DNA of 64,000 nt from Trichobilharzia regenti. Lineage: Eukaryota > Platyhelminthes > Trematoda > Strigeidida > Schistosomatidae. The notes below the pieces were generated by a model. The model was not told the DNA's origin. It saw nothing but the letters and a program-made list of their open reading frames with translations, and made no database searches. Shown here piece by piece: positions 11,510 through 53,885 of the stretch. The DNA lies in assembly GCA_944472135.2 (NCBI GenBank), contig CALYDD020000398.1:124001-188000 (forward strand), read 5' to 3'. Every line of letters starts with the position of its first letter. The stretch's first letter is position 1. A program made the position numbers and the translations under genes.

Positions 11510-14500
11510 TCAAACGTGCAATCTCTTTGTAATCAGTAATTGAAGGTCTTCACTTATGCTCGCCTACAGTGGAAGAATCCAAAAGAAAGTGGATAAGCAG
11601 AAGTATTTGTAGTGTGTATCTTCCCAATGAATCAAGGTTTAGAAAAGTTTTTGAGAAATGGTGTTAAACACAGCCTAATTCACGAACACAGTATGATTAG
11701 AGTACAGTAAATTCTGTAGTTTAAGTGAAGTGTGCCTGGGTGAGTGACAGATTGACTGTCTGGCTGACTGACTGATTCATATCCTGACATCTGACTGTAC
11801 TACTAGGCCACTCTTGCATCTGTTGTACTCATGATTGGCAGACTTTAAAAAGCAAGTTCATATTAGGTTAGATCATGAAGGGAGTTCAGTTAAAGAAACG
11901 TTTAATTCGGTAGGTACTCAGTTGTCATTTCTTCCTCCTCTGTGATACTTCTGAGGTTTGAGCACTTAGAATCAACACTTTTCTTGTTGATCCAAAGCTT
12001 TTTGGTAACTGACGGTGAAATGAAATCGCCAGTCGTTCAGCTATACAGCAGTCACCGGTGGTTTCTACCAAGTTAATTGAAAAGACAAACACTCGGCGAG
12101 GATGTCGGGTAGTGATGGGCATAAGTTGAAATTCTCAGGTCGTTGTTTCTGTCTCAGTGACTGAGTGGTTGGTGGGTTGACCTCATCACATGAAGGTCCT
12201 CGGTTCTATATTCAGTGTGTTCACCGCTACCTACTGGCAGGTAGTCCCAAAGTCGGGTGAAATAACTGACCACCATTCTATGACTTTCGATGATTCTCCA
12301 TAGCTGACATTCTATCATGATCTCACTTGAGATCGGTTAAATCTGTACACACCATCATTTGAGAATTCCAAGTTGCTTTGGTTTTTCAAAAAATAATGTA
12401 TGGGGTGGTGATAGAGTAGTATTCAGTAGATGGTGTATCTGACACAATGTGTAATCACTAGTCACAATTACAATGATGATTCGACTTTCATAGTCGCTCT
12501 TTTAGTTTCTGAATTATCCTGTCCCGTCAATTTTACTGTTGATGAAGTATTCCGAATAAGTTCAATGGTTATTTTTGCATGAAAGTCGTATTGATAGTAA
12601 TAATAGTGGTAATAATAATGGTAATGACTCACGGTAATCTCTGTGTGAAAATGAACCAGTTGTGTGTGCTTTAAAGTCAAAGTCTACTGATGCATTCTGC
12701 TCAGTGATAATGCCTCAACATCTTTATAATTTACAGAAGGAGCATTTTAATGATTATTGACTCAACCGATTACAAACTGTGGAGCAAACTTCTCGATGAA
12801 GAAGGGGTGTTGATAAAGTCTCCTTGATTCACATTTCACTTCTGCACATCACCTTAGGTAATCGTTAGTTCGCAGGTGTTTGACTGATCACAAACTAACA
12901 TTTGTTAGACTACCACTGGTAACGACGATGTAGTGAACAGCTTTTTCATCTCAGTTTGAATCTGTTTAACAAAGCGAATGCATGACTCCCACCCATTGCA
13001 GATTTAAGTCCGAAAATTCAAGTTAACCCACAAATCCCTTGGCCGACAATATTCATCAGCCAATGAACACAAAAGGGATATATTTCAGAGAAAGAAATCA
13101 ATGAATATGGTAAGAATATTGAATTGTCTCTCAAAAACCTCAATCACGCTAGGGCGAGACTATATAATACTGTTGATTGATTGATTGATTAATTGATATA
13201 TGAGTAACTTTCAGAAACCACTGACGTCGAACAGAAGTGACTTTGTATTTCTAAGTTTCACAGATTAGATTCTGTGCATCATCTGTTCGCAAAATTAGAT
13301 AGCCGGAATTCAGTTGCTGAAACTGGTCCTGCTGTTTGAGCTCAGTCGAACCAGGTTCACCGCTGCTGACGTCAAGCAGATCACACATTGTGATCTGAAT
13401 ATTCTTGATTTCTTAAGGAAACTGTGGCAACTTTTCAGCACCACGAACTGAGGAATTTTATCGAATGGGCGAATTTCAATGGCATTCCGTACCAAACATG
13501 CTACTGATTGATGTGAGTAGTGAGAGAATACTTGTCAGTTTATCACATTTCGACTAACGGCTCATCAGTTAAACATTAAAAAATTCAATAAGTCTTTCAC
13601 TGAAGTCATACTTCACTAATCGAAGTAATTGAATTGGTTTTACAGGATAATAAAATTACCCTTGTCTTAACATTAATAGTGATCAACTTACGGGAAGTCT
13701 GAAATTGTATGAAATCACATAATCAGGATGATCATCAGTAGTTGTCTTAGTCAATTTTGAATTGATTAATAGCTTGTTGTGACAGGTGTCTAAATGATCC
13801 CTGTTGGATTGGACAGAAGCTTAGGAGACCGTTGAACGACGAAACATTCGAGACTCTGAGAGGAACGTAGTAGTAAGGATGACAGATTTGAGGATTGCTC
13901 ATACTCTCTCTTGATTTCAGATAATCGTCATGGCTTGTTTGGCTTCCAAGTGGAACACACCACCTCATCTAGGTGCTTCCATTGCAATCGACTCTCTGAT
14001 ATTCCCCTCAACTGGCTACTACACCAATAACCCACCTGAGCACATAATCATCTGTGTGTCATACTCAGATGACCGACTCATCGCTTCCTCCATTCCGTTT
14101 CCACTCGACAATCTGACGAGTATTGTGACGTGAATGTCTCCCCAGCATCTGTGAATTTCAACTCTTTCTCTCCCTCCGTATTCCATTGATGAATGTCACT
14201 CGTTGAAGAAATCCGCATGTATGTTTACTCAACTGCAGGAAAGGTAAAATAGAACTCACCGAGGTTCGCGTCTTGTCACTGTTTCAGGCTGAATCGGAAG
14301 TGATTTTGTAGAAAGATTCATTAAAACTTATTGAATTACCAATAAAACAGTCACGTAAAAGGCTACCTTGTGAAGAAAACTCCACTCAACGGTAGTAAGA
14401 CTTGGCAATGGAACAGCTTACAAGACGAACACAAAGTTATCGGTCCTCAATCTAGTCGATAATCACGTAATCATCAATTTAACGGTTTGCTTTCACCACT

Positions 14501-17500
14501 GGCTGAGAAGCCACATGTGTCTCATTCGATCCCAATGGTTATCTATCTTTCCGGTTGGACAAAAGTATATATACCATGATTTGCAATAAATATCGGTCAT
14601 TTTCTGAACAGATTAGATATCATTCCTGAACATTCATGTTTTACTAGGTCTTCTGAATACTATCAGACTGGTATTTTAGAGGGAATCAACCAATAGGATA
14701 TTTTCAGTGGAAGTATTTCGATAGTAAATTGGCGATATCTACGATCATCATAGTCACTGGAGTTTGTGGAATTTGCAGTGAAGCAATAATTTGGAGAAAC
14801 TGTAGGTCTGCATGCCACTGTATACTACTGTCTGATTGATATTAGCCGATAATTTCGCCTTTCGAATTCCGCACAGTTCGAAGGGTAAAAGTATCACTTG
14901 CTTTACCTTTGGAAATCGAAACGATTCTGATAACAATATGCATGATCTTCTTGGTAACATAATTGGCTACACATGAATAACGTGAAACGTAGACTCTGAA
15001 AATTGTGGAATTTCGCGTTTTAGATCATTTTATGGAGTAAATAACTAGAGGAGAAGGCATTCACTTATATTAGGAATTGAAAAGCTGTGATGCATCTGAG
15101 AGTGAAATCAAGTGTTTCCGGTATACCGTATTTCCTATTCACATTAATTTGTGTGGACTAAACTCTAATCGATTGACGAAGCTTCTGAGCATTTAGGGAG
15201 CTTAATGATTGTTGAGGTCATTCAAGGCGTATATATATACCACTAGTAAGAACTGTTTTGATTGTTGTTTGAGGTATTGAAAGCACTTCCGTGAGGTGCT
15301 ATTCATATCTTTTAGTTTCGCCTGTCAACGGTATTATTAGTGTTGTTGTGGTTGAATCCACGATTAACTACTAGAGTAGTTTCCAAAGTTGGTCACGAAC
15401 CTTCTTCGTTAAGACAAACATTGGAGATGATGTAGATCTATAGTAATATCCCTTGGCGTCCCAGGTAGAACGCAGTCCTTCAGGCTGGAAGCCCTGTTGT
15501 TTCCTTACACATAGTAAGGCTAATAGTCACACGATCAGACTCTCATCTCTCCCTGGCCTACTATCGACCAGTGAGCTGAGAGATGTTAAGTAGTGAGTCA
15601 GCCAGCTTTCGAATTCCAGATGACGAGAGGTGGGGCTGGTGAGCATTCTGCCACTATAACACCGACACATGTGACAACCGGGAGGTACGTATCAGGAAAT
15701 ACCTCCTTATCTGTAACTCTCCAGTAACAGGCAGTAATTTGTCTAGTACACGCTCAGCTCTCATTGATTCTCTCACTGGAGTCAGTTCGTGGTCAACACT
15801 GAAATCAATGAAAAGACTATCGAACAACACGAGGATAGAGCATTTTCCATTCACTCATTGGATCCGTATAGTTTGAATTGCAACAGGCTGTAAGACTGGT
15901 GACATAGTTTAGTTGTAGTTGAAATTCGATATAACAAGGAAACAGTTATGATACTACTACTACTACTACTACTACTACTACCACTTACAGGACAGAGCTG
16001 AAATCAGAAGAAGAATTCAAATTGTATCAGGACATTTGTGTTAACCAGTGCATTTCACATCCAGTATAGACAAGCTCACAAACACATACAATGGGTAGGG
16101 AGCTGATGAAAATATGGCCAACTGGAAAGCTGACTGACTTCACTTGAAGATTCAACATTATTAATTGTCTATACAAACAAATCACCTTTTAGTTACGGGT
16201 GTGACTGCGAGCTGATCTTCGTTGGAGATTCAGCAAAAAACTGGCAAGAAATATCGGACAGCTGTTTGTTTCCTCATGGTTCGAGAACCTCAGGTCTCAC
16301 CAAACCAGTGCGTTTGTAACCCAGGATCTTTCAGTTACGAGACAGGCTAGTAGACCATCCAACCACTGACACTCGATCCAATGTCCAGTTCATTTTTCAC
16401 AACTCTTGACAATTAGCGAGATAAACGGGTCAACCCTCAGTCAATGTCATAGACAGTAACTCAAGTATAAGTGAAGACTTAGGCCAAAATAGCTGTCCTC
16501 GACAATGTTTCTCAAACTGATGTCACATCATGATCATACGTTTATTCAATGAAATCTCCGAGGACCACTAGTTGATAACGTTAATACTTCTGTCAGGTGT
16601 CTTCAAACCTCCTTCCACTTTCACCAATACAATCTAAGAAGTGCTAATCTTAAGCTTAGTATCCTGCTCAATTATCATCCATTGTTCCACATTCACACTT
16701 GACCCTCGATACAGTGGACTAATTCGAGATCTTACCAAACAGTTTCGTGCCGTTATATACGCCGAAGGTGTTTTGAAGTGATTAAAATCAACTAACGGCA
16801 TCACATCCACTCGACCATCAATTTCTGTCGATTTTCACATATCAAAAAGTATAATCAAACCCTCATACATCAATGCTTATTTACTTACACGTTTAAACTG
16901 AAGGCAATTCAAGATTACATATTTAGGGAGAGAAAGAGAAGCAACAAATTACTAATTTTATTAATATAAGAAGTATTTATTGAAGTCATTTTCAGTCAGA
17001 TTTCGACGGTAATGCCATCAATAATTGGGAGTGCGTAGGTATATTCAGGTGACAGGTCACAAACTTTGAGAAATCTGCCTCTCCCGAATTTCAGCTGAAC
17101 GAAGTCGTTGTATTGAGGTGAGTGAGTCTGTGGAACCAGTCTCTCCTATTGGTAAGTGACTTTCTTTTATTCAGTCAGCCAAACTGGTGGTTATTACGTT
17201 ATTGTCATCTGATTAGATCAAACTTTCCCGTGATTGATAGATAATCATCGTGAATTATAGTCCACTGAAATCAGCGTAATGGGAAGGATTCGGATTTTCA
17301 GAATTTGTATCAAGCTGGTAACTTCCTCAGTATGGTTGAGAGACTTGCTGTCAGCAACTGCGTTTGCACCACATTGTGGATCAGGTGCCCAGCTGGGAGG
17401 AATTATAAACGATGGACTCTGACTCACAAATACAGGTGGAAATATGGATGGATTGGACCTATGCTTGGGGGAGAGATGAATGAAATCACTCGTCAGGCGA

Positions 17501-20500
17501 ACCTCCGAGAGAAACCTGAATGTGGAGTGACAAGTTGGACGTCACCTCGAGATTAACACAGAGGAGATAAAAATTCTATGAGAAATCTTTTACTAACTGA
17601 AGAGAACAGAAGGAAATGGAGATATGCTCCTGAATTCCTGTGTTCTGCTCAAAAACCCTAACTATAATTACAGAATTATTCTTATTTGTTGTTACACGCA
17701 TTTGCGGTCGCCGTTGATTGATTCTCAAACTGAAATGAAATCCTTGGTCTCTTCTGACATGTTGATTTCCAGTAAACATGCTTCAACGGTGTCTGAATAT
17801 CAACACGAATCTACTTTTGTTGATTACGATCAGATGAAATTCTATGAAAAATAATTTAATAGATAAAGAGGACTTCATGATGAACATTTTGTCGTGTTCA
17901 CTACTTGTCAACTGGTCTTTTGGCCAATGATATGGTGTTTGAAACCTGGGTGTATGCTGCGGACGTGTTTCAGCTAGGACACCTCCACTCACTGTGAATG
18001 CGGATACTTCCATTCAACAGCTGCCGAGCAGGATAAATTGTACACATTCTACATTTCACTGCCAGTCGTTATCAACAGAATAGTATTCTTTTATCTCATG
18101 TTTGAAGATAGTCTATAAACAAGATGTGCAGGCAGTATGTGATCTCAATAAAACGAACAACATCCCAACTTAGGGTGAAATTTCATCACGACTTTCAAAT
18201 CAGATGTAGCTTTATTAATCACAGACAGGTATTTATTACTTTTGACCAAAACAAAACGTGCATACAATTGTCATTGTATGTTGGTCAGTACAGAGGTGTG
18301 TTTATCTCTTACCTTTGAGGACCTTACCTTTGAGAGAAGCAACAAATTACTAATTTTATTAATATAAGAAGTATTTATTGAAGTCATTTTCAGTCAGATT
18401 TCGACGGTAATGCCATCAATAATTGGGAGAGCGTAGGTATATTCAGGTGACAGGTCACAAACTTTACGAAATCTACCTCTCCCAAATTCCACTTCTAGAC
18501 AACAACAGCTGAACGAAGTCGTTGTATTGAGGTGAGTGAGTCTGTGGAACCAGTCTCTCCTATTGGTAAGTGACTTTCTTCTATTCAGTCAACCAAGCTG
18601 GTGGTTATTACGTTATTGTCGTCTCATTAGGTCATATTTTCCTGTCATTGATAGATAATCATCGTGAATTATAGTCCACTGAAATCAGCGTAATGGGAAG
18701 GATTCGGATTTTCAGAATTTGTGTCAAGCTGGTAACTTCTTCAGTATGGTTGAGAGACTTGATGTCAGCAACTGCTTTTCCACCACATAATGGATCAGAT
18801 GTCAAACTGGAAGGAATTAGCAGCAATGGACTCTGACAACGCACCAAACACGAACCTACGTTCTAACAGAAATGCATATGGAAATGGTGTTGGATTGGTC
18901 CTAAGATTAAGGTAGAGATGAATGACATCATTCGTCAGGCAAACCTCCGAAGGAAACCTGAACAGGAAGTGACAAGTCGGACGTCACCTCGAGAGTGACA
19001 TGGAGGAGATGAAATTCTATGAGAAGTCTTTTAGTAGCTGAAAAGAACTGGGGACAACAGAGGAAAATGCAGATGTGCTCCTGAATTCTTGTGTTCCACT
19101 CCGAACTCCAAGGGATAATAACTGAAATATTCTTATTTGTTGTTAGGCGTAATCGTAGTCTCCGTTGGCTGATTCCCTTACTGAGCTGGATTGGTTGATC
19201 TCTATCGACATGAATTCTCCCACTACAGATGCTTCAACTATGTCTGTGGATTGACACGATGTTATGTGAATAATGACGACCGGCAGTGGATGAGCATTTT
19301 GTCGAACCAACAACATCCGAACTCAGGGTGAAACTTCACCATGACTTTCAAATCAGATGTGACTTGATTATTTACAGACTAGCATTTATTACTTTTAACC
19401 AAAACAAAATGTGCATACAATTGTCATTGTGCGTTAGTCAGTACAGAGGTGTGTTTGGCTCTTACCCTTGAGGCCTTTCAAAAGATATAGAGAATTTGTT
19501 TAAGTGCTTGAGGGTGCTGTAACTTATAAACATTTAAAAATAAAGGCATGTAGATTCATCCGTTTTCATTTCATCCATTCACCTCTTGAAATCCTTGTAA
19601 ACGAGCTCCACACATCATCCCAGTATGCTTCTTCATTTGTGAATGATATTCCTCATTTCTAATCACTTACATCCCTGTTTTTAGTTGTTCTATCTGAGTG
19701 ACTAAGGTTATGCATCACTGAAGGAATTCAGGTCACACAAAACATCATTCATTCAGTGTTTCACAGTTTACCAGTTGCCTATATCTCATCTTATCGCACT
19801 GGGAGCATTTTTGTAGTATTGACTGTGTTACTGAAAGGCATAGTCGACGTCGATTTTACATTTTTTATGATCCAGTACAGAAATGCCATTTAACTGTACA
19901 GATTTGATGCGAAATCCAGCGAAAGTGTACTCCGTTTTGCTAGTTTCAGCCACTTATGATTCATATCAAATGAGCGTTCTTCATTCTCATATTGTGTCTT
20001 ATTTGTATATCGATAGATTAAATGAATATCTCGAACCAAGGATATGCAATATGAATGGATCAGTTATTCTCACCCGAGGCAGCTGTTGAAGTGAGCAAGA
20101 GGAAAGAACATCTGGTGAGTTTTGTACTATTTCTGGAGATGCTGTGTTTGATTCGATAAAAGGACAAAGGATGGACAACAAAATAATAAGATTTGGAGAA
20201 ATTCTGGCTATAGGAAATGTCCTTGCCCATGACAGGAACAGTGGTCAGCTGACAAGTCATACGGAGAACTCAATTCCTGCTACACAGCACTCGAAATTAT
20301 TGGGAGGATCGATCCACAGACACCTTGTGGATGAGGAGCATTTCGTTGACATATTCGAATCATTCAAAATAATAAATATACTCAGGATTCCGAATTTACC
20401 GTCAACTCCATAATTCGATCGTGATAAAAGCCGAGGACTCGTGTTTGTAGCGATATTAAACATGAACTACGATTCGGTCGATAAATGATAGATTGGTAGG

Positions 20501-23500
20501 CAGCAATGCGTGGGAGGTCCTAGGTTCGCATCCCAGGAAGTGCACTCGCTAACCATGTGTATTTCATTAGCTGGTAGAAGAATTATCTCGCTCTCCAGTT
20601 TCTGCTACCATCAAATATGTAGCGATAATCTGATTAGAGACAATGCAAGCATATTCACCTGGAGGGATCAGTCGTATCATCCAGTAGTCGTCTCAAGTTC
20701 CATAATTAGATTTCTCAAAAAAGATTATAAGTGTGTATTAGTACTGTTGTACGAAGACACCGGCCTAAAAAGACGCCGAGTGCACTATTGTTCTCACTCG
20801 TTTTCTGGATGAAATTATTTCTCTAAGCAACTTTATCATCAAATCGATTTGACCTTCGAAAATGCCCCAACGACTCCAGAAATTTCAGTTTAGGCAAGCC
20901 CAGGATGACTGTGTGTTACAGAATACAACAGGAAATGTGACTTACATTGCAGGCCTGTAATTGGTTCACAGAATCAGAAAAGCACATGAAAATAACTATT
21001 TTATACTCTTGACTCAATTCTCTATGACAATGAGATAGAAATTCTATTGATGCTCTAAAATAAAGTAAGAGTGTATGCAACAACGTGAGCGGAATTTGAA
21101 AATCAAAACCTCGAGGCTAGATTGATTGACTGCCCAAACCTGCCTGATTGATGGATGACTAAATGACAGTGACAAGTTATGTTAGGCGCCAAATCACTGT
21201 CATCACCACCATTGAAGGTGGGTGACACAGTTTCACACCTTCATGGGAGGGGAGGAACAAATAAGGCTGAAAATATTTTAGTGCATGTACGGATATGATC
21301 GATTTTAATTTGGGTTGTGACTTTAGTAGGGTTAAGGAATCAGTAGAAAACAGCATGTACTGTTTCGTCAAAGTTTGGTGTCCTTCGGAACTACATACCC
21401 TTGACCTGATCAACAGTGTTAACTAGAACCTATGTGTTACAAGTGAATTCTGTTGAACACTGGGGCACTCGGAAGGATCATAACAAAATATGATTTCTTA
21501 CTTCTGATGAATTGTGATGCATAATGCACCATCACTAACCAACGTAAGCGTTGAGCACTCCACACATTTGTCTTGGTGAAGCCCACATGTGATGAACAAC
21601 TGTGCAATTAGTTGTATATTGCCTAAGTAGGAGAGTAACAAAGTCCCACATAGAAAACAGATATGTCATTCCCTGCCAATATAGATTTTTGAATCATTAC
21701 CAAACGAGCATATCCTGTCTCCTGCATAATCCACGCAGTTTCAACTCAGCCTCAGACTCTTCGATTTCACACGCAAACACAGTATTCCATGCATTAGAGA
21801 TGAAACAGTGTCTCACTGCTGACCATTCATCTACTGGGTGGGGATATATGCATGGTTACATAATTCTTCAGCATTCTGAAGTGATCGGTTAAAATAAATA
21901 GAGAGAGAGAGGGAAGCTTGTATGAATAATGCTGCTCTCTGGGGAAAATTATCAGTCAAGAAGACCGTCAACGAGAACAGCCGACATTTGAATCAGCGCC
22001 AGTAGAGTTAAGCCGATCTTATGGATTAAATAAATAGACATTTCCACCCAAAGTAGTTTATAGGCGATTTAAGCAGTTTTGCAGTTCAATCAACTCCAGA
22101 CTGAAACTTATGAAACATATTATGAATCTTACTTGAAGTACTTAGTTAAAAACTGCCAGAATATCTCGTCAGATGTGAGAAAGTATTGTGTGGGATTCAC
22201 ATGACAGTTGACTGAACACTAAGACTGATAAGATTTCGATAGTGAAATGCATGATGAGACTCAATTGAACACTACTATTCACAGTGGTACACACTCTCGG
22301 TCTCTGAGATCACAGAAAGTTTTAGTAAACAAGATGGGTTTATGCCGGTGATATGCATATATCACCTACAACGAATGTGATTCGTTGTACAGTGTTCAGC
22401 GTCTCATGTTGTCTAATCAAGTTCGACATAAATTCCCAACTTCATCAGTCAATGTTTTAGGCAAGCATTATCTGCTCACTTCAAACGATGATTACAAATG
22501 TAAATGTCATCAACTTACTGTATTAGACTAGGAGATAAACAGAAAGAACATTGGTAAATTTATATTAGACTTGCGAAGTAAGGAATAAGAGTGTGAACTT
22601 CATTATGGGTGTTGTAAGATGTGAAGTTGGTTAGATTTCGGTGAGACGAATGTCGTGAACTGACAGTCTTCCACTTGTCAGAGGAACTTCTATAATCTTA
22701 TTTCAAGTTTTTTCGAAGATAACACAGTTCAGTGTGGACATGATTTACCTGTATGCGATGGCTTATTCTATCGAATAAAATATTGCATGTATGATCTGTA
22801 CATCACCAACTACACAGAATCCTACCCCTATAATGAACAAAAGATGCGTGGATCTGCATTATCTTGCCTGTATTTTCTGTTGTGATATGTTCATGTCAGT
22901 CACTGGTACTCATCACTAATTGAGTGTTTCGGGGTGGCCATGTATTACGGTGGAAATCGAAAACGTGCACAAACTCGACCGGGAGGATATCGGAAAATTC
23001 GATCTCTCTTAATTTCAAATCTTCCGAATAAATTAATCGAATTGGTTAGTAGTGATCAAAGTTTAATGTGATGGGAATATCACCGCTCATTTCAGCCAAC
23101 TTGTCAGTAGTATGTTTCGTGTCATTCATCTCTATACAACGCAGTAATATTTCTCATTCCAGTCTCAAAACGTAAAGAATATACTTGTTTCAGAGAGGAC
23201 TTCACCAAACATTGAAACAGTGATCGCATCAAAGGCAAACTTACTAATCTGACCGGATTTTCTTAGAATTGTAGGAAAAGACGAACAGAGGAAGAAAGAA
23301 ATTTACAAGATCTTCTCTTTCGGGTATGAAAATGATTGGGTGGAAGGCGTTAGCAACGACAGCCGATCAGTGACAACCGTCTCCCTATACCCGTGGTGTT
23401 ACTTTCCATCGCATTCATCGAGCTGAATGCACAAATGTAATACCCCAGTTAAACTTATCCACTGCGTTGAATGATATTAGTGGCTGTGATTATGACAACT

Positions 23501-27144: not shown

Positions 27145-27195
27145 GCTTGATTTTCCTGTGATGGATGGTTTATTCTACAGAAGAACACTGACTCC

Positions 27196-27202
27196 TTATA
27201 TA
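27196..27202 (-). promoter_or_regulatory. TATA box of left MEG copy
   Basis: The minus strand reads TATATAA about 52 bases before the ATG, leaving a 5' leader of roughly 20-25 bases if transcription starts about 30 bases downstream. The site is identical in the right arm. Confidence 0.65.
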
Positions 27203-36800: not shown

Positions 36801-36851
36801 TGTCAACACACACTTCAAGTCGAGGCTTTGTAAATGTGTTTGGTGAGGCAT

Positions 36852-38529: not shown

Positions 38530-38536
38530 TATATAA
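38530..38536 (+). promoter_or_regulatory. TATA box of right MEG copy
   Basis: TATATAA 52 bases before the ATG at 38,588. A leader containing gaataaaccatccatcacag follows. Sequence and spacing are identical to the left copy. Confidence 0.65.
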
Positions 38537-38587
38537 GGAGTCAGTGTTCTTCTGTAGAATAAACCATCCATCACAGGAAAATCAAGC

Positions 38588-38651
38588 ATGAAGGCTGTTT
38601 TCTGCTGCATTCTGTTCATATTCATCAGCCTGACGATAAATTCGGAAACAC
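38588..38651 (+). CDS. MEG exon 1 (signal peptide), right copy
   Basis: Identical to the left exon 1. It starts MKAVFCCILFIF and ends with NSET plus one base before GTAAGT (38,652-38,657). It is the only ATG between the TATA box and the donor. Confidence 0.85.
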
Positions 38652-41600: not shown

Positions 41601-44600
41601 GCTTTATCTTCAGTCGCCACCCGTCGCCTACATTAGTAGTAGTCTATTAGTCCCATATAAAAACCTCTAAACGAAACCAGTTTCCACGTGTTCAGAAACA
41701 CATTTAGAGTGTCTTTTCAGGCAGGGTTGGTTGGCCCACGAAATACCTTTCTCCTTCTCTCGGGCTTAAGATCAGCTGAAAATCAAGCGAACACGTGAAT
41801 TGGTTGGCGATGGAGACGCATACAGAAATGAGGGGAAATGTGATATTACGTGATAGTCTGAGAGAAGCAGAAGAGCTAGGAGAAGTCAATACCATGATGC
41901 TGTTAGTAACTGAAGAAGTCCCTCCTTCGCTGCTGTTGTCCCACTCATCTGCGGGTCTGATGCCCCAGGCGCACTATTATATCTTCAGTAGGTTATCCTC
42001 ATTCAAAATGAATATGCACGGCGATTCATTGACAAGCCTATCAAACATAACTACACTTTTCATCCCTTCTCATGTATTATTTAGTATTAGCAAATATAAT
42101 TATTCCTGAATAATCGCCACTCAAGCAGTAATGAAAAGAAGAAGACAAACAGTTCGGCGAATTCATTTCCCTCCCTAACATTCATGTACAATCACTTTTT
42201 CACGAAAGAGGGTGGTGACGGAAGAGACAAGTTGTCATAATCACAGCCACTAATATCATTCAACGCAGTGGATAAGTTTAACTGGGGTATTACATTTGTG
42301 CATTCAGCTCGATGAATGCGATGGAAAGTAACACCACGGGTATAGGGAGACGGTTGTCACTGATCGGCTGTCGTTGCTAACGCCTTCCACCCAATCATTT
42401 TCATACCCGAAAGAGAAGATCTTGTAAATTTCTTTCTTCCTCTGTTCGTCTTTTCCTACAATTCTAAGAAAATCCGGTCAGATTAGTAAGTTTGCCTTTG
42501 ATGCGATCACTGTTTCAATGTTTGGTGAAGTCCTCTCTGAAACAAGTATATTCTTTACGTTTTGAGACTGGAATGAGAAATATTACTGCGTTGTATAGAG
42601 ATGAATGACACGAAACATACTACTGACAAGTTGGCTGAAATGAGCGGTGATATTCCCATCACATTAAACTTTGATCACTACTAACCAATTCGATTAATTT
42701 ATTCGGAAGATTTGAAATTAAGAGAGATCGAATTTTCCGATATCCTCCCGGTCGAGTTTGTGCACGTTTTCGATTTCCACCGTAATACATGGCCACCCCG
42801 AAACACTCAATTAGTGATGAGTACCAGTGACTGACATGAACATATCACAACAGAAAATACAGGCAAGATAATGCAGATCCACGCATCTTTTGTTCATTAT
42901 AGGGGTAGGATTCTGTGTAGTTGGTGATGTACAGATCATACATGCAATATTTTATTCGATAGAATAAGCCATCGCATACAGGTAAATCATGTCCACACTG
43001 AACTGTGTTATCTTCGAAAAAACTTGAAATAAGATTATAGAAGTTCCTCTGACAAGTGGAAGACTGTCAGTTCACGACATTCGTCTCACCGAAATCTAAC
43101 CAACTTCACATCTTACAACACCCATAATGAAGTTCACACTCTTATTCCTTACTTCGCAAGTCTAATATAAATTTACCAATGTTCTTTCTGTTTATCTCCT
43201 AGTCTAATACAGTAAGTTGATGACATTTACATTTGTAATCATCGTTTGAAGTGAGCAGATAATGCTTGCCTAAAACATTGACTGATGAAGTTGGGAATTT
43301 ATGTCGAACTTGATTAGACAACATGAGACGCTGAACACTGTACAACGAATCACATTCGTTGTAGGTGATATATGCATATCACCGGCATAAACCCATCTTG
43401 TTTACTAAAACTTTCTGTGATCTCAGAGACCGAGAGTGTGTACCACTGTGAATAGTAGTGTTCAATTGAGTCTCATCATGCATTTCACTATCGAAATCTT
43501 ATCAGTCTTAGTGTTCAGTCAACTGTCATGTGAATCCCACACAATACTTTCTCACATCTGACGAGATATTCTGGCAGTTTTTAACTAAGTACTTCAAGTA
43601 AGATTCATAATATGTTTCATAAGTTTCAGTCTGGAGTTGATTGAACTGCAAAACTGCTTAAATCGCCTATAAACTACTTTGGGTGGAAATGTCTATTTAT
43701 TTAATCCATAAGATCGGCTTAACTCTACTGGCGCTGATTCAAATGTCGGCTGTTCTCGTTGACGGTCTTCTTGACTGATAATTTTCCCCAGAGAGCAGCA
43801 TTATTCATACAAGCTTCCCTCTCTCTCTCTCTATTTATTTTAACCGATCACTTCAGAATGCTGAAGAATTATGTAACCATGCATATATCCCCACCCAGTA
43901 GATGAATGGTCAGCAGTGAGACACTGTTTCATCTCTAATGCATGGAATACTGTGTTTGCGTGTGAAATCGAAGAGTCTGAGGCTGAGTTGAAACTGCGTG
44001 GATTATGCAGGAGACAGGATATGCTCGTTTGGTAATGATTCAAAAATCTATATTGGCAGGGAATGACATATCTGTTTTCTATGTGGGACTTTGTTACTCT
44101 CCTACTTAGGCAATATACAACTAATTGCACAGTTGTTCATCACATGTGGGCTTCACCAAGACAAATGTGTGGAGTGCTCAACGCTTACGTTGGTTAGTGA
44201 TGGTGCATTATGCATCACAATTCATCAGAAGTAAGAAATCATATTTTGTTATGATCCTTCCGAGTGCCCCAGTGTTCAACAGAATTCACTTGTAACACAT
44301 AGGTTCTAGTTAACACTGTTGATCAGGTCAAGGGTATGTAGTTCCGAAGGACACCAAACTTTGACGAAACAGTACATGCTGTTTTCTACTGATTCCTTAA
44401 CCCTACTAAAGTCACAACCCAAATTAAAATCGATCATATCCGTACATGCACTAAAATATTTTCAGCCTTATTTGTTCCTCCCCTCCCATGAAGGTGTGAA
44501 ACTGTGTCACACAGCTTCAATGGTGGTGATGACAGTGATTTGGCGCCTAACATAACTTGTCACTGTCATTTAGTCATCCATCAATCAGGCAGGTTTGGGG

Positions 44601-47600
44601 CAGTCAATCAATCTAGCCTCGAGGTTTTGATTTTCAAATTCCGCTCACGTTGTTGCATACACTCTTACTTTATTTTAGAGCATCAATAGAATTTCTATCT
44701 CATTGTCATAGAGAATTGAGTCAAGAGTATAAAATAGTTATTTTCATGTGCTTTTCTGATTCTGTGAACCAATTACAGGCCTGCAATGTAAGTCACATTT
44801 CCTGTTGTATTCTGTAACACACAGTCATCCTGGGCTTGCCTAAACTGAAATTTCTGGAGTCGTTGGAGCATTTTCGAAGGTCAAACTGATTTGATGATAA
44901 AAGATGCATGGAGAAAATAATTTCATCCAGAAAACGAGTGAGAACAATAGTGCACTCGGCGTCTTTTTAGGCCGGTGTCTTCGTACAACAGTACTAATAC
45001 ACACTTATAATCTTTTTTGAGAAATCTAATTATGGAACTTGAGACGACTACTGGATGATACGACTGATCCCTCCAGGTGAATATGCTTGCATTGTCTCTA
45101 ATCAGATTATCGCTACATATTTGATGGTAGCAGAAACTGGAGAGCGAGATAATTCTTCTACCAGCTAATGAAATACACATGGTTAGCGAGTGCACTTCCT
45201 GGGATGCGAACCTAGGACCTCCCACGCATTGCTGCCTACCAATCTATCATTTATCGACCGAATCGTAGTTCATGTTTAATATCGCTACAAACACGAGTCC
45301 TCGGCTTTTATCACGATCGAATTATGGAGTTGACGGTAAATTCGGAATCCTGAGTATATTTATTATTTTGAATGATTCGAATATGTCAACGAAATGCTCC
45401 TCATCCACAAGGTGTCTGTGGATCGATCTTCCCCATAATTTCGAGTGCTGTGTAGCAGGAATTGAGTTCTCCGTATGACTTGTCAGCTGACCACTGTTCC
45501 TGTCATGGGCAAGGACATTTCCTATAGCCAGACTTTCTCCAACTCTTATCATTTTGTTGTCCATCCTTTGTCTTTTTATCGAATCAAACACAGCATCTCC
45601 AGAAATAGTACAAAACTCACCAGATGTTCTTTCCTCTTGCTCACTTCAACAGCTGCCTCGGGTGAGAATAACTGATCCATTCATATTGCATATCCTTGGT
45701 TCGAGATATTCATTTAATCTATCGATATACAAATAAGACACAATATGAGAATGAAGAACGCTCATTTGATATGAATCATAAGTGGCTGAAACTAGCAAAA
45801 CGGAGTACACTTTCGCTGGATTTCGCATCAAATCTGTACAGTTAAATGGCATTTCTGTACTGGATCATAAAAAATGTAAAATCGACGTCGACTATGCCTT
45901 TCAGTAACACAGTCAATACTACAAAAATGCTCCCAGTGCGATAAGATGAGATATAGGCAACTGGTAAACTGTGAAACACTGAATGAATGATGTTTTGTGT
46001 GACCTGAATTCCTTCAGTGATGCATAACCTTAGTCACTCAGATAGAACAACTAAAAACAGGGATGTAAGTGATTAGAAATGAGGAATATCATTCACAAAT
46101 GAAGAAGCATACTGGGATGATGTGTGGAGCTCGTTTACAAGGACTTCAAGAGGTGAATGGATGAAATGAAAACGGATGAATCTACATGCCTTTATTTTTA
46201 AATGTTTATAAGTTACAGCACCCTCAAGCACTTAAACAAATTCTCTATATCTTTTGAAAGGCCTCAAGGGTAAGAGCCAAACACACCTCTGTACTGACTA
46301 ACGCACAATGACAATTGTATGCACATTTTGTTTTGGTTAAAAGTAATAAATCTAGTCTGTGAATAATCAAGTCACATCTGATTTGAAAGTCATGGTGAAG
46401 TTTCACCCTGAGTTCGGATGTTGTTGGTTCGACAAAATGCTCATCCACTGCCGGTCGTCATTATTCACATAACATCGTGTCAATCCACAGACATAGTTGA
46501 AGCATCTGTAGTGGGAGAATTCATGTCGATAGAGATCAACCAATCCAGCTCAGTAAGGGAATCAGCCAACGGAGACTACGATTACGCCTAACAACAAATA
46601 AGAATATTTCAGTTATTATCCCTTGGAGTTCGGAGTGGAACACAAGAATTCAGGAGCACATCTGCATTTTCCTCTGTTGTCCCCAGTTCTTTTCAGCTAC
46701 TAAAAGACTTCTCATAGAATTTCATCTCCTCCATGTCACTCTCGAGATGACGTCCAACTTGTCACTTCCTGTTCAAAATTCCTTCGGAGTGTCGCCTGAC
46801 GAATGATGTCATTCATCTCTACCTTAATCTTAGGACCAATCCGACTCCATTTCCATATGCATTTCTGTTAGACCATAGGTTCGTGTTTGGTGCGTTGTCA
46901 GAGTCCATTGCTGCTAATTCCTTCCAGTTTGACATCTGATCCATTATGTGGTGGAAAAGCAGCTGCTGACATCAAGTCTCTCAACCATACTGAAGAAGTT
47001 ACCAGCTTGACACAAATCCTGAAATTTCGAATCTTTCCACTACGCTGACTTCAGTGGATTTGAATTTATGGTGATTATCTATAAATGACATGAAAATATG
47101 ACCTAATCAGATGACAATAACGTATTAACCACCAGTTTGGTTGACTGAATAGAAGAAAGTCACTCGCCAGTAGGAGAGACTGGTTCCACAGACTCACTCA
47201 CCTCAATACAATGACTTCATTTAGCTGATGTTGTCTAGAAGTGGAATTTGGGAGAGGTAGATTTCGTAAAGTTTGTGACCTGTCACCTGAATAGACGTAC
47301 GCACTCTCAATTATTGATGACATTACCATTGAAACTTGACTGAAAATGACTTTATTATTCATAAATAACCCTAATATTAATAAAATCAGTAATTTGTTGC
47401 TTCTCTTTCTCTCCCTATATATTTTCATGAATTACCTTCAGTTTAAACGTGTAAGTAAATAACCATTGGTATATGCGGGTTTGATTATTCATTCATATCT
47501 GAAGTGAGACAGAAATTGATGGTCGAGGGGACGAGATGTCGTCAGTTGGTTTCAATCAATTTGACACCCTTTTGGCGTATTTAACAGCACGAAACTGTTT

Positions 47601-50600
47601 GGGGAAGATCTCGAATTAGTCGACTGTCTCGAGAGTCAAGTGTCAATGTGGAAAATAGATGATGACCGAACATAATACTAATCTTACGATCAGCACTTCT
47701 TAGATTGTTTTGGTGAAAGTGAAAGGAGTTTTGAAGACCCCTGACTGAAGTAATAATATCAGCAACTAGTGGTTCTCAGGGATTTCATTGAATAAAGGTA
47801 TGATCATGATATGACATCAGTTTGAGAAACATTGTCGTAGGCAGCTATTTCGGCTAAATTCCTTACTTATAGGTGAGTTCCTGGCCCATGAAATTGACTA
47901 AGGATTGGGTCATATATCTCACTTAATAGCAGGAAGTTTCAATAATGTACCGGACATTGGATCGAATGTCAGTGGTTGGTTGGTTTACTAGCCTGTGTCG
48001 TAACTGACAGATCCTAGTTTAGAAACGCACCGGTTTTGTAAGGCCTGAGGTTTTCGAACTATGAGAAAACAGCTGTCCGATACATACTGCTAGTTTCCTG
48101 CTGGTTCTTCAAAGAAAATCAGCTCGTAGTCAAACCCGTAACTAAAGGACAATTTGTTTGTATAGATAAATAATAATTTTGAATCCTCAAGTGAAGTCAG
48201 TCAGCTTTCCAGTTGGCCACGTTTTCATCACCTACCTGCCCACTGTATGTGTTTGTGAGATTGTCTATATTTGATGTGAAATTCACTGGTTAAGACAAGT
48301 GTCGTAATACAATTTGAATTCTTCTCATTTCAGCTCTGTCCTGTAAGTGGTAGTAGTAGTATCATTTCTGTTTCCTTGTTATAATGAATTTCAACTACAA
48401 CTAAACTATTAACTAATAAAGTATAATTATATTTTAATAGTTTACACACAATGATAAGTTTTGTTATTGGTAATATTTCGAGCATTAACTATTAACTGTT
48501 TAATAATACTTTGAGAAAGCTTTTAGCATTAAATAGCGAAACGTCGGTAAAAACAATCTCGTTGAGAGGTATTTCCTGATAAGTACTTCCTGGTTGTCAC
48601 ATGCGTCGGTGGTTTAGTGGCAGCATGCTAACCAAGCACACCTTCGATTTCTGGCTCACTGACTCCTTAACATCTCCCTGCTCACTGGTCAAAAGTAGGC
48701 CAGGGAGAGATGAGAGTTTGTTCGTGTGGATATAAACCTCACTATGTGTAAGGAAACAAAAATGCTTCCAGCCTGAAGGACTGCGTTCTACCTGGGACGA
48801 CAAGGAATATAACAATAGATCTACATCATCTCCAATGTTTGTCATAACGAAGAAGGTTCGTGATCAACTTTGGAAACCACTCTGGTAGTTAATCGCGAAG
48901 TCAACCACAACAACACTTGTAATACCGTTGACGAGTGAAATAAAAAGAGATGACTAGCACCTCACGAAAGTGCTTTCAATGCTTCAAACATTAATCACAA
49001 CAGTTCCTAGTAGTGGTATATATATACGTTTTGAATGACTTCAACAATCGTTAAGTTCGTATACAATTGGTGGATGGTGGCTAGCAGTGGAATCCAGGAT
49101 GCGCATTTCGTCCTATTTGGGACTCGTCAGCTGGATGTACCTGCATTTCTCAGTGAGTGATGATGTTCCCACCGAGGCTCGAACCCAGTACCAATAGTTT
49201 CAAACGCCAAAGCGTTATCCACTAGACCACTTGGGCCACGAGAGCCACCTCTTGCGCAACGGGTCATATTAATTATTGAATTGAATTCTTGATTTTCCCA
49301 TTCGATTCGTTGCACAAGAGGTGGCTGTCGTGGCCCAAATGGTTAGTGGATAACGCTTTGGCGTTTGAAACTATGGGTACTGGGTTCGAGCCTCGGTGGG
49401 AAATTCATCACTCAGGTACATCCAGCTGACGAGTCCCAAATAGGACGAATTGCGCATCCTGGATTCCACTGCTAGCCACCATCCACCAATTGTATACTAA
49501 CTAAATGCCCGGACATCGTCAAAGCATTTGTACAAGAAGCCGACATGTCAACCTGAGACCGAGCACTTCGGTCCAATCAATTGACGGGAAAATCAAGAAT
49601 TCAATTCAATCGTTAAGTTCCCTAATTGCTCAGAAGCCCCGTCAACCGATTACAGTTTAGTCCACACAAATGAGTGGGACTAGGAAATACGATATACCGA
49701 AAACACTAGATTTCACGCTCATATATATCACAGCTTTCTAATTCTTAATATAAGTGAATGCATTCTCCTACAGTGATTTACTCCATAAAATGATCTACAA
49801 ACCGAAATTCCTCAATTTTCAGAGTCTACGTTTCACGTTATTCATGTGTTGCAATTTATATTTTCAAGAAAATGATGCATATTGTGACCAGTGTAGTTTC
49901 CATTTCCGAAGGTAGAGCAGGTTATATTTTTACCCTTCGAACTGTGCGAAATTCGAAAGGCGAATTCATCAGCATATATCAATCAGACAGTAGTATACAG
50001 TAGCATTCAGACCTGCAGTTTCTCCAAATTATTGCTTCACTGTAAATTACACAAGCGCCAGTGGCTACGATGAAAATATCCTAGTGGTTGATTCCCTCAA
50101 AAATACAAAACAGATGGTAATCAGAAGACCTAGTTAAACATGAATGTTGAGGAATGATATCTAATCTGTTCAGAGAATGACCGATATTTATTGCAAATCA
50201 TGGTATTTATATTTTTGTTCAACCGGAACGATAGATAACCATTGAGATCGAATGAGACAAATGTGGCTTCTCAGCCAGTGGTGAAAGTAAACCAATAAAT
50301 TGATGATTACGTGATTATCGACCAGAGTGAGGACCGACATCCTAGTGTCCGGTTTCTTAACTGTGGCATTGTTAAGTCTTACCACCGTTGAGTGGAGGTT
50401 TCTTCAAAAATTCGCCTTTTATTTGACGGTTTTATTGGTATTTTAATAAGTTTCAATGAATATTTCTACAAAATCACTAACAATTCAGCCCGAAACAATG
50501 ACAAGACGCGAACCTCGGTGAGTTCCTTTTTACCTTTACTGCAACTGAGTCAATTTTCATGTGAATTTCTTCAACCACTGGCATTCATCAGTGAAATATT

Positions 50601-53600
50601 GAGGGAGAGAGATACAGACAGTTGAAATTCACAGATGCTCGGGAGACATTCACGTTACAATACTCGTCAGATTTTCGATTTGAATACGAATGGAGGGAAC
50701 AATCATTAGGTCATCTGAGTATGACAGATAGATGATCCTGTGATCATGTGGCTTATTGATGTGGTAGCCAGTTGAGGGCAGTGTCAGAGAGTCGATTGAA
50801 ATGAAGGCGATTCAATGAGTTGGTGTTTTCCACTCCGAGAGCAAACATGACATGATGATGGTCTGAAATCCAGCGAGAGTTGGAGCAGTCCACAAATCTG
50901 TCATCCTTACTTTTATTAGTGTTAATAGCAGTATTTGAAGTTGAAGGATTAAAGCCCGTCTGTTTAGGAAAATTGATTCTCCTCAGAACTACTGATGTGT
51001 CTAATTTGAAACTATTGATTTTGATTTCCATTGATTACCATGGTAATTTTCTTGGAAACACCTCCATGACAATGTGTTCTCCAAAGTCCTCGTTGCTATC
51101 TGGCTCCATGACTGCCAGTAAGCTTCTAGTTCCTCCTCACACCACGATGTCTCCCATGTCACCCTAAGATGTTTTTAAATGTCGTCATTTTGTGTTTGTT
51201 CTGTCCGGTCCAACAGGGATCATTTAGGCACCTCACACAACAAGCTACTAATCATTTCAGATTATATGATTTCATACAATTTCAGACTTCCCGTAAGTTG
51301 ATCATTATTAATGTTAAGCCATCTTGTAATACCCATTCGATTTCGTCGAACATTGAAGTCTGACGTCAGCGAGAGACTTTCTGGATTGAATTGATGGATA
51401 CCATTCCCGTTAAGCAGCTCACTGAACACGTTCCTCAATGCAAAACTGTTTATGTAGCTGACCAATCCCTGCATAGCACAAAACATGAGTAGTGAATTTT
51501 TATGTTAACCGCCATCACATGTGTAACTCCTAATCAACAATACATTCAGCATTTATTCGTGTATATTTGTCAAAAAATTCATCAACTCTCTTGATATCAC
51601 ACTTCATGAAATGATATCAATTAGGGAATCAATGGAAGCGGGAAGTACTGGAAAACTGCTCCATGTCAGCAAAGGACTCACTGCAAATACAGACTCATGA
51701 AGCCATCCAACAGCCATAGACAACACAATGCGTAAATTAAAAGATATGCCATTTTTGTGTGTACACTGGCTGATGAAAATTGTCGAAGTTTCTTGTAGTG
51801 TTGAAACGATTGACGGACTTGTAGGTTAGTTGAAGTTTCTGGCTTAAAATCGCAGTGGATGGGAGTCATGCATCCACACTGTCAGACAGTTTCAAACTGA
51901 TCCGAAACAGCTGTTGACTACATCGTCGTTAGCAGTGATTGTCTAACAGATGTCATTTTGTGACCAGTCAGACACCTGCGAACTGACGATTACCTCAGGT
52001 AGTATGCAGTAGTGCACTGTGAATCAAAGGGAATTTATCAATTCGCTTTTTTCATCCAGAAGCTTCCTGCACAAGTTGCAATCAGTTGAGTAAATAATCA
52101 TCAAAATACCCATCCTGTGAATTATAAGAATACTGAGGTGTTATCACTGAGCAGAATGCATTAGCAGAATTTGACTTTAAAGTACACACAACTGGTTCAT
52201 TTTCACACAGAGATTACCGTGAGTCATTATCATTATTATTACCACAGTTATTACTATGAATACTACTTGTATGCAAAAATATGAATAGTTTAAACGATAT
52301 GCCATGATTCAATTGAGAAGCACTAACAACTTCTCGAGATCACTAATGCTTCTGCCATTATCGAATGTATGTCTCTCACTCGATTTGACTGCCTTCATAA
52401 TAATGTCTATAGAGTTTTGAAAAATTCCTCGAACGAAGCAAAGCACACAATGAGTTTATGAGGTACTCCGTTGTCGAAGTAAGGGCAGACTTCCATTCCT
52501 CCTTAGCCCATCAGGCTAGATAATATTCACTAGCACGTTTCACAAGTGGACTGATGCTATGAGTCATGCATGTATTAGGCTCTACAGGACCACGTGGACC
52601 TATTTGGATGTTGGTGTTGCCCAATACATCAACCTATGAAGTCATGACACTTGATCATCATTATTTTAGGAATCCCTTAAAAGCCTCTACACAAAGTCAC
52701 GTCAGAGGCAATGAGAATCTTAAAGTCTACATTTATCTCGATTTTCCAGTTCAGTGTTATTGACTACAGTTGACTGGTCCACTTATGTACCTAACCACTC
52801 AGTCATAAGAGAATGAAGTCAGTGGGGTAGTTAGTGTACAGGCTTTCGTAAAAAATATCAACACATCCTCATAACGACTGAGGTTTTGTCTCCCTTCATT
52901 TCAAATCTTGGATATCTTGTCCCATAAAATGTGTAGATAAGGACTATCTGGGCATATTTATGGGGTGACATACAGCCTTGATGGATGTTATATCACTGAT
53001 TAATTCCGATTCGTCCAGTTTCAGACAAAATATCAACTGCCACATGAAACGAAATCTGTAACTATAAGTATTCTAGTGAATTCCTGAAATACACACATAT
53101 TAACGCCCAAAAGTTGGATAATTTTCAGGTAGATAAGATACACTTCCAAGCCACTCTCCTGTCATCATGTAAAATAAACTTAAGGTGAAATTCACTTCAG
53201 TATTTGAGATAGCAGATGGGATGTAAACCTATGAACTAACTTAAAAAGAAGCTGTGTATGTTTTTATACATAGTATTGTGACTCGGAGGTAGAGATGGAG
53301 GAAGATAGAGCGAGTGAGCGAGTGAATGTGTGATCTATTGACTTTCCAGTCTTCTTCATTTGAATAAACACCAAATGTGTGTAAACGGGGTGGTTGAATA
53401 ATCACTGAACATATTCGGAATAATTCATCACCAGTAGAATGACAAGGTAAGAGAAAACCCAACCTGAAATAGTGACTCTGAATGTCATATCGTTATTGCC
53501 GTTGTGACTAGTTGTTACCAACTGTGCCTGATACGTCATCTACTGAATAATACTGTCTCACTGCCCCATACATTATTGTTCGTAAACAAAGCGACATGGC

Positions 53601-53885
53601 ATTTTCAAGCCGTTGATTGTAGATGTTTGGGTGGTCTCAAGTTCGATTCTGTAATCGCATCATTTATGGAGAATTATCCAAAGTGATCGAGTGGCAGGTA
53701 GTTATTGCAGCAAACTTTGGAACACCTGGGCATTCGGTGTTGGTGAACGCCTGCAATCGATGCCCTTTTTCAATGCTATTTCCAACATTCATTCATTGGG
53801 AAGATGCACACTACAAATATTTCTTCTTATCCACTGTTTTTTGCTTCTTTCACTGTAGGCGAGAATAAGTGAAGACCTTCAATAA
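38588..53885 (+). CDS. Putative secreted micro-exon gene (MEG), right copy
   Basis: Exons on the plus strand: 38,588-38,651 (signal peptide), 39,681-39,760 (80 nt), 40,581-40,595 (ANYRL), 43,203-43,211 (SNT), 44,779-44,787 (ACN), 45,653-45,661 (LPR), 46,261-46,269 (ASR), 47,239-47,256 (KWNLGE), 47,440-47,448 (FKR), 48,334-48,342 (LCP), 50,489-50,517 (29 nt), 51,286-51,292 (7 nt) and 53,859-53,885 (last). Together they give one open frame of about 97 codons. Micro-exons from 40,581 to 48,342 are all multiples of three in phase zero; the 29- and 7-nt exons sum to 36 and restore the phase. Acceptors are mostly pyrimidine-rich. A conserved 8-nt candidate (52,211-52,218, AGATTACC) would change the end to a shorter tail. 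The architecture is that of schistosome MEGs; the protein is probably secreted. The family is not recognised and no transcript was consulted. Confidence 0.72.
39681..39760 (+). CDS. MEG exon 2 (80 nt), right copy
   Basis: Acceptor gtgttttcttttccctag, donor gtaata. Reads HLIHIPLDVMWLFLHKQF onward with no stop in the phase set by exon 1. Compared with the left copy: L/P, W/R, L/I and P/T changes and one silent change. Confidence 0.65.
41051..41059 (+). other. Candidate cassette micro-exon with in-frame stop
   Basis: ATCGTATAG lies between tttgtcag and gtaagt and is conserved at 24,671-24,679 on the minus strand. In the phase of its neighbours it reads I-V-stop. It is either a truncating alternative exon or a chance splice pair. 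Confidence 0.35.
45322..45591 (-). pseudogene. Penelope nuclease-end relic, right arm
   Basis: Mirror of 20,144-20,413, with a few substitutions (KLWGRSIHRHLVD against KLLGGSIHRHLVD). Confidence 0.55.
47940..48110 (+). repeat. Decayed tRNA-like SINE, right arm
   Basis: Mirror of 16,240-16,400: cagtggttggttggtttactag with a degenerate B-box region downstream. Confidence 0.5.
48415..48565 (+). repeat. Right-arm-only segment with a Penelope-like end motif
   Basis: Not matched by the left arm (15,720-15,900 differs). Near its end it reads agcgaaacgtcggtaaaaac. The GCGAAACGTCGG string resembles the GAAAC part of hammerhead-type ends seen in Penelope-like elements; the rest of a ribozyme core is not evident. 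Confidence 0.35.
49070..49145 (-). ncRNA. Hammerhead ribozyme, minus strand, intact core
   Basis: On the minus strand stem I is atccag/ctggat. The core CTGACGA corresponds to plus 49,124-49,130; stem II is GTCC/GGAC; GAA is followed by the stem III bases ATGC/GCAT and the cleavage-site C. All invariant core bases of a CUGANGA...GAAA hammerhead are present. The very short stem III is typical of the schistosome type. Confidence 0.88.
49412..49475 (+). ncRNA. Hammerhead ribozyme, plus strand, stem III base changed
   Basis: Core CTGACGA at 49,426-49,432, stem II GTCC/GGAC, GAA at 49,447-49,449, cleavage expected after C 49,458. Base 49,450 is T where the other copy has A, so the closing pair of stem III (15.1-16.1) becomes T-T. 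Activity is probably reduced. Confidence 0.85.
49620..50488. other. Right-arm intron sequence, no further gene seen
   Basis: Matches about 14,290-15,190 in inverse at roughly 85 per cent by eye. Short ORFs differ in frame and length between the arms and are not supported. Confidence 0.5.

What the first reader, a model, noticed from the sequence alone, without database searches (positions are those of the whole stretch)
11510..53885. Head-to-head pair of micro-exon genes carried by the palindrome arms
Each arm has a TATA box, a signal-peptide exon ending in GTAAGT, and the same ordered set of tiny exons over about 15.5 kb, facing outward. MEGs are a schistosome-specific class of secreted proteins. 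A palindromic, gene-converting MEG locus would be a new arrangement.
Basis: partly seen in the sequence, partly recalled or inferred. Interest (0 to 1): 0.9.

Follow-up and report, generated by a model that had tools for sequence, protein, structure and literature searches.

The report
Mirror-image pair of fluke micro-exon genes
A blood-fluke genome, probably of the bird parasite Trichobilharzia regenti, carries two facing-away copies of what looks like a secreted-protein gene cut into tiny exons, on the arms of a large DNA palindrome whose inner part appears to be kept nearly identical by gene conversion.

Summary
Window 11.1-54.6 kb is an inverted duplication. Its inner arms (18,333-32,062 and 33,690-47,406) are 98.7% identical; outer blocks are about 69-87%. 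Both arms carry a TATA box, an identical signal-peptide exon ending at GTAAGT, an 80-base second exon and an outward series of tiny exons. Two tests support the series. Seven acceptor-exon-donor units of exactly 9 bases lie on the right arm's gene strand, against 0 on its other strand, 0 in the outer flanks and about 0.3 expected. In the diverged outer arms six chosen units are 95% identical against 77% overall. A reverse transcriptase in the window is 99% identical to one of Trichobilharzia regenti, a bird schistosome, so a micro-exon gene (MEG) is plausible there. Differences between the inner arms are clustered (variance/mean 14), which fits patchy gene conversion. Exon 2 lies in an unconverted island (5 of 80 bases differ). 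Not shown: transcription, the reading frame (using every 9-base exon gives a stop), the MEG family, the assembly. My searches found no report of a palindromic MEG locus. New variant of a known kind.

The parts
33690..47406 (+). Right inner arm, 98.7% identical to the left inner arm
18333..32062 (-). Left inner arm
32063..33689 (.). Spacer at the axis; much of it is similar to repeated DNA elsewhere in the window
47388..54584 (+). Right outer arm, diverged (about 77% over 5263 aligned columns)
11139..16953 (-). Left outer arm, diverged
38530..38538 (+). TATA-like box, right copy
27194..27202 (-). TATA-like box, left copy
38588..38651 (+). Exon 1 coding part (signal peptide by eye), right copy, donor GTAAGT
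27081..27144 (-). Exon 1 coding part, left copy, identical
39681..39760 (+). Exon 2 (80 bases), right copy
25970..26049 (-). Exon 2, left copy; 5 of 80 bases differ
41051..41059 (+). Predicted 9-base exon a (left 24,679-24,671); ends in a stop if read in the frame that leaves exon 2
43203..43211 (+). Predicted 9-base exon b (left 22,527-22,519)
44779..44787 (+). Predicted 9-base exon c (left 20,954-20,946)
45653..45661 (+). Predicted 9-base exon d (left 20,082-20,074)
46261..46269 (+). Predicted 9-base exon e (left 19,474-19,466), weak acceptor
47442..47450 (+). 9-base micro-exon f, exon unchanged in the diverged outer arm
16889..16897 (-). Left counterpart of exon f
48334..48342 (+). 9-base micro-exon g, exon unchanged in the diverged outer arm; a length change of a short repeat begins 7 bases after it
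15989..15997 (-). Left counterpart of exon g
50489..50517 (+). 29-base micro-exon, 2 differences from left; acceptor below my scan's cut-off in the right arm
14260..14288 (-). Left counterpart of the 29-base exon
51286..51292 (+). 7-base micro-exon inside a 38-base identical stretch
13692..13698 (-). Left counterpart of the 7-base exon
52211..52218 (+). 8-base micro-exon inside a 46-base identical stretch
12633..12640 (-). Left counterpart of the 8-base exon
53859..53885 (+). Start of the predicted last exon, right copy (short end of coding sequence, then untranslated region)
11537..11563 (-). Start of the predicted last exon, left copy

Best explanation
The locus is an old inverted duplication of one micro-exon gene, standing head to head (divergent) around a repeat-derived spacer. 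Each copy has its own TATA promoter and a signal-peptide exon, then a chain of 9-base and other tiny exons spread over about 15 kb. It most likely makes a small secreted protein whose isoforms depend on which micro-exons are spliced in. After the duplication, gene conversion between the arms reset most of the inner 13.7 kb (promoter, exon 1, the first five 9-base exons) to near identity. It left short unconverted islands, one of them covering exon 2, and stopped where the arms lose colinearity, at a 1.4-kb extra block in the left arm. Shown from sequence: the duplication, the mosaic of differences, the exon units and the conservation of several of them. Inferred: splicing, secretion, conversion as the cause, and function.
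For: Inverted arms. Exon 1 and promoter box identical in both arms. Seven 9-base splice units on the right arm's gene strand, 0 on its other strand, 0 in four flank scans; none of 1500 random sequences exceeded 4 at any one length. Six outer-arm units differ at 9 of 195 aligned columns, against 30.1 expected from random windows, P 5e-5 (30.2 and the same P with one unit misplaced). These units were partly chosen for their conservation, so that P is optimistic. Of the 8 gene-strand units that the scan alone finds in the right outer arm, 3 differ at 0-1 columns from the left arm; the 3 antisense units differ at 19-21%. Mosaic: 121 substitutions in 13,533 inner columns, 49 of 67 windows with none against 13 expected, variance/mean 14, identical runs of 3605, 1838, 1610 and 1201 columns. 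Reverse transcriptase 99% identical to T. regenti. MEG anatomy as described in PMC4671649 (section 20 read).
Against: No transcript. Splicing in every predicted exon gives a stop at 9-base exon a, in the frame set by exons 1 and 2. Exon 2's donor is weak. Exon 2 and the two flanking exons make up more than half of the predicted coding length. Four of the 8 gene-strand units found by the scan in the right outer arm are not ones that I call exons, and three of these four are poorly conserved (41-64% of columns differ). No protein relative was found, nor a Pfam or solved-structure match for the exon 1 and exon 2 pieces. One assembly only.
Confidence: 0.78

Rival explanations
1. A recent inverted duplication with no gene conversion: near-identity simply reflects youth.
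For: Most inner windows have no differences (49 of 67).
Against: Differences are strongly clustered (variance/mean 14). A sharp island with 47 substitutions in 177 aligned columns lies inside identical DNA. Outer blocks are 13-31% diverged. One age does not give all three.
Confidence: 0.07
2. Assembly artefact: two alleles or a folded read placed head to head, or polishing that levelled real differences.
For: No reads could be checked. Very long identical runs are what a fold-back would give.
Against: A 1.6-kb unpaired spacer, a one-sided insertion with a target-site duplication, a one-sided tandem duplication and diverged outer arms are not expected of a fold-back.
Confidence: 0.08
3. A pair of decayed or unexpressed micro-exon gene copies.
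For: Stop in 9-base exon a in the default frame; weak exon 2 donor; PMC6362228 (passages) reports MEG transcription in T. regenti at markedly lower levels than in T. szidati.
Against: Several micro-exon units and their splice sites are conserved in the diverged outer arms. Exons 1 and 2 are open in both arms.
Confidence: 0.15
4. Splice-like motifs by chance, with no gene.
For: Scores come from my own approximate matrices; at the loosest threshold (10) the left arm's other strand also has two 9-base units.
Against: Strand, length and conservation controls.
Confidence: 0.03

Closest known systems
Schistosoma mansoni MEG-3 (Grail) cluster
   Same: Secreted micro-exon genes in neighbouring copies; a 9-base micro-exon; a duplicated micro-exon beside an SM-alpha-like element (PMC8293314, passages), compared with a hammerhead-bearing insertion and a one-sided tandem duplication here.
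   Different: No palindrome or gene conversion is mentioned in the passages I saw. No sequence relationship was shown here.
Schistosoma mansoni MEG-2 (ESP15) cluster, chromosome 3
   Same: Many neighbouring copies, short disordered secreted products (PMC10526429, passages and sections 7 and 19).
   Different: Described as clustered consecutively on the leading strand, not head to head.
MEGs reported from Trichobilharzia (MEG-4, -8, -9, -26 relatives; some apparently specific to bird schistosomes)
   Same: Same genus; PMC6362228 reports MEG transcripts not close to known S. mansoni MEGs (passages); PMC5825161 reports MEG-4, -8, -9 and -26 relatives.
   Different: I could not compare sequences with them.
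Gene-bearing palindromes of sex chromosomes (recalled)
   Same: Arms kept alike by arm-to-arm gene conversion.
   Different: Here a host-interface gene class of a fluke, with conversion confined to the inner part. Chromosome unknown.

Membership tests
Micro-exon gene (MEG) | Signal peptide mostly or entirely in the 5' exon | tested here: met
   Exon 1 codes a short basic start, a hydrophobic core and a small polar end, judged by eye; no signal-peptide program was run
Micro-exon gene (MEG) | Central coding part mostly of exons of 36 bases or less between two longer flanking exons | tested here: inconclusive
   10 of 11 predicted internal exons are 7-29 bases (107 of 187 internal bases), but exon 2 has 80; predictions only
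Micro-exon gene (MEG) | Micro-exons mostly of length divisible by 3 (79% in MEG-26 to -32) | tested here: met
   7 of 10 predicted micro-exons
Micro-exon gene (MEG) | Found in schistosomes | tested here: met
   Reverse transcriptase at 1,376-4,387 is 99% identical to a Trichobilharzia regenti record; the species of the window itself is inferred from this one element
Micro-exon gene (MEG) | Transcribed, spliced and secreted | not testable with these tools
   No RNA reads or proteomes on hand
A named MEG family (1, 2, 3, 4, 8, 9, 26 ...) | Sequence relationship to a named member | tested here: inconclusive
   Exon 1 and exon 2 pieces found no candidate; four of the five published red-clade motifs were looked for by pattern in six frames and no complete one was seen, but a motif split by an intron would be missed
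Gene-converting palindrome | Inverted arms with clustered, not uniform, differences | tested here: met
Gene-converting palindrome | Copies within a species more alike than each is to its orthologue | not testable with these tools
   No second fluke genome was reached; the genome search did not complete

The most novel reading that the evidence does not exclude
The palindrome is a half-converting diversity device. Arm-to-arm conversion keeps the promoter, the signal peptide and the first micro-exons of the two copies the same, while exon 2 (4 amino-acid changes, 1 silent) and the last exons escape it. The pair would then deliver two versions of a host-facing peptide from one shared delivery module, with selection acting against conversion at exon 2.
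Probability: 0.17. Interest if true: 0.7.

Novelty: new variant of a known kind. Interest (0 to 1): 0.52.

Why it matters
MEGs are fast-evolving, repeatedly duplicated secreted genes of schistosomes, and transposons are suspected of driving their duplication (PMC4350168 section 9 read; PMC8293314 passages). If real, a mirror-image pair shows a further process, arm-to-arm conversion, that can both erase and spare differences between copies. The diverged outer arms also serve as an internal comparison that points to exons of 7-9 bases without any RNA.

Tried and rejected
Exon search by published red-clade motifs found no complete motif; the fourth motif was not searched. Pfam and solved-structure searches of the exon 1 and exon 2 pieces found nothing; weak Pfam rows for other frames were taken as chance. 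NCBIfam, PHROGs and PADLOC were not searched. Two protein searches with single-exon pieces found no candidate; the database does hold T. regenti proteins, but the pieces are short and the search needs three shared 5-residue words. The 110-residue antisense open frame at 39,448-39,780 overlaps exon 2 and was not taken as a gene. I looked for a further exon that would put every 9-base exon in one open frame: an 11-base unit at 40,994-41,004 would do so, but its acceptor is weak, so I do not claim it. Four other gene-strand units of the scan in the right outer arm (at 47,780, 51,261, 53,350 and 53,435) were dropped: three are poorly conserved, and the 18-base one at 47,780 (4 of 38 columns differ) has an in-frame stop in two of three frames by eye and stays open as a candidate. 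Selection on exon 2 is not claimed: the island's flanks differ at a similar rate (10 differences in 177 columns, 5 of them in the 80-base exon), and by my rough estimate an 80-base exon would touch an island by chance about one time in ten.

Print: full-text searches of the open PMC library for palindrome, inverted repeat, gene conversion, inverted duplication or head-to-head with micro-exon and schistosome terms (1, 10, 4 and 20 of 21 papers listed) showed no paper on a palindromic MEG locus, judged from titles, the shown starts of abstracts and the papers I opened. Within PMC10526429 'palindrom', 'inverted' and 'head-to-head' occur 0 times; within PMC4350168 'gene conversion' and 'inverted' occur 0 times. 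Many subscription papers and preprints are not covered.

Full report
What is there. The window holds a large inverted duplication. From the axis outward, left 32,062-18,333 pairs with right 33,690-47,406 at 98.7-98.8% over 13.7 kb. Beyond that, aligned blocks of about 69-87% identity continue to about left 11,139 and right 54,584. The 1.6-kb spacer (32,063-33,689) is not paired; much of it is similar to repeated DNA elsewhere in the window.

Organism. A 1003-residue open frame at 1,376-4,387 (minus strand) has endonuclease and reverse transcriptase domains. Its best match is 99% identical to a UniRef record of Trichobilharzia regenti over 96% of the 541 residues compared, a schistosomatid. Two hammerhead ribozymes lie in the right arm, as in schistosome SM-alpha elements (recalled). 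A congener, or a transferred element, is not excluded.

The gene. On each arm, facing outward, there is TATATAAGG and a 64-base coding stretch that starts with ATG, has a hydrophobic core and ends before GTAAGT; these are identical in both arms. In the frame set by exon 1 both copies are open, and they differ at 5 of 80 bases; read by eye, four change an amino acid and one does not.

Micro-exons, test one: number, length and strand. A scan with approximate metazoan splice matrices (threshold 12) found 16 acceptor-exon-donor units of 3-36 bases on the gene strand of the right arm downstream of exon 2; 7 of the 16 are exactly 9 bases. On the other strand there were 6, none of 9 bases. Four scans of the outer flanks had no 9-base unit, and the centre had one on each strand. 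Order-2 Markov sequences averaged 0.34 nine-base units in 300 trials, at most 4. In 1500 further trials no single length reached more than 4, which allows for my having picked 9 after seeing it. At thresholds 10, 11, 12, 13 and 14 the right arm has 7, 7, 7, 6 and 4 nine-base units on the gene strand and 0 on the other at each. The left arm's gene strand has 9, 7, 7, 7 and 4, and its other strand 2 at threshold 10 and 0 above it. The left inner part is a copy and not independent evidence.

Micro-exons, test two: conservation. The outer arms have drifted to 77% identity over 5263 aligned columns. Six units there (9, 9, 29, 7 and 8 bases and the last exon's start, with 12 bases before and 8 after) differ at 9 of 195 aligned columns, where random windows of like size in well-aligned parts give 30.1 on average, P 5e-5 (in one search the 29-base unit was placed 7 bases off, with nearly the same result). 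Gap columns are left out there. I first saw these units in a list of shared words, so they were partly chosen for conservation and the P is optimistic. A fairer look takes all units that the scan alone finds in the right outer arm. Of 8 on the gene strand, 3 (47,442; 51,286; 52,211) differ at 1, 0 and 0 columns. The unit at 48,334 has an unchanged exon and splice sites, but a repeat length change starts just after its donor (22 of 50 columns differ, gaps counted). The one at 47,780 differs at 4 of 38, and three differ at 41-64%. The 3 on the other strand differ at 19-21%. The 9-, 9-, 7- and 8-base exons are unchanged between arms and the 29-base exon has 2 differences. The 7- and 8-base exons lie in identical stretches of 38 and 46 bases, the longest of 26 stretches of 20 bases or more; 5 of those 26 hold a unit that I call, 21 do not.

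Reading frame: unsettled. Exons 1 and 2 leave the frame at zero. There, six of the seven 9-base exons are open and the first (41,051-41,059) ends in a stop. With two bases carried over, all seven are open but the 29-base exon has a stop at the same place in both arms. With zero carried into the 29-base exon, both arms run to the same stop early in the last exon. So skipping exon a, or a further exon such as the weak 11-base unit at 40,994, gives an open frame. This is by eye; only RNA can choose.

Gene conversion. Between right 33,690 and 47,228 there are 121 substitutions in 13,533 aligned columns. They are not spread evenly: of 67 windows of 200 columns, 49 have none (13 expected), variance/mean is 14, and runs of 3605, 1838, 1610 and 1201 columns are identical. 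The differences sit in islands: 68 differing columns in a 198-column island at right 36,848-37,024 (47 substitutions in 177 aligned columns); 10 in 177 columns around exon 2; and a rising density from right 46,747 to the end of the inner arm. The end coincides with a block present once on the right and as a tandem pair on the left (16,935-18,325 and 18,333-19,477; two aligned pieces, 80.8 and 86.8% alike), so loss of colinearity may stop conversion (inference). A young duplication would not leave such islands; an old one without conversion would not leave kilobases without a difference.

How it most likely works. Each copy makes a small secreted peptide whose isoforms depend on the micro-exons used, as in MEGs of Schistosoma. 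Conversion keeps the inner modules alike, while exon 2 and the end of the gene differ between copies. Shown: sequence anatomy. Inferred: splicing, secretion, function, conversion.

Compared with what is known. MEGs have a signal peptide in the 5' exon, central exons mostly below 36 bases, and mostly lengths divisible by three (PMC4671649, section 20 read). The predicted gene fits, except that exon 2 is longer than a micro-exon. MEGs duplicate often (PMC4350168, section 9 read) and sit near SM-alpha and other elements; in MEG-3.1 a 9-base micro-exon was duplicated beside such an element (PMC8293314, passages). MEG relatives, some not close to known S. mansoni families, are reported in T. regenti (PMC5825161, sections 17 and 19 read and other passages; PMC6362228, passages). 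No palindromic MEG locus came up in my searches. I file it as MEG-like, family unassigned, in a new arrangement.

Noticed in passing
window 49,059-49,606: Insertion present only in the right arm, self-complementary, with a hammerhead ribozyme in each half in opposite directions and a 14-base repeat of the target at both ends.
   Followed up: partly
window 28,708-28,905 and 36,848-37,024: A sharply bounded island (47 substitutions in 177 aligned columns) inside otherwise identical arms, about 1.7 kb upstream of each gene start; nature unknown.
   Followed up: partly
window 16,935-19,477: Tandem pair of about 1.1-1.4-kb blocks in the left arm; the right arm has one block. It marks the end of the near-identical arm.
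   Followed up: partly
window 1,376-4,387 (-): 1003-residue open frame with endonuclease and reverse transcriptase domains, 99% identical to a T. regenti record over the part compared.
   Followed up: yes
window 6,549-8,154 and 55,375-56,977: Same-strand repeats of 76% identity on either side of the palindrome; possibly copies of one element.
   Followed up: no
window 5,394-6,217 (+): Two overlapping open frames that look by eye like parts of a Penelope-type element; this is recalled resemblance, and the one frame scanned had no match above Pfam's cut-off.
   Followed up: no
window 27,300-38,400: One further 9-base splice-like unit on each strand between the two gene starts, perhaps mirror copies.
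   Followed up: no
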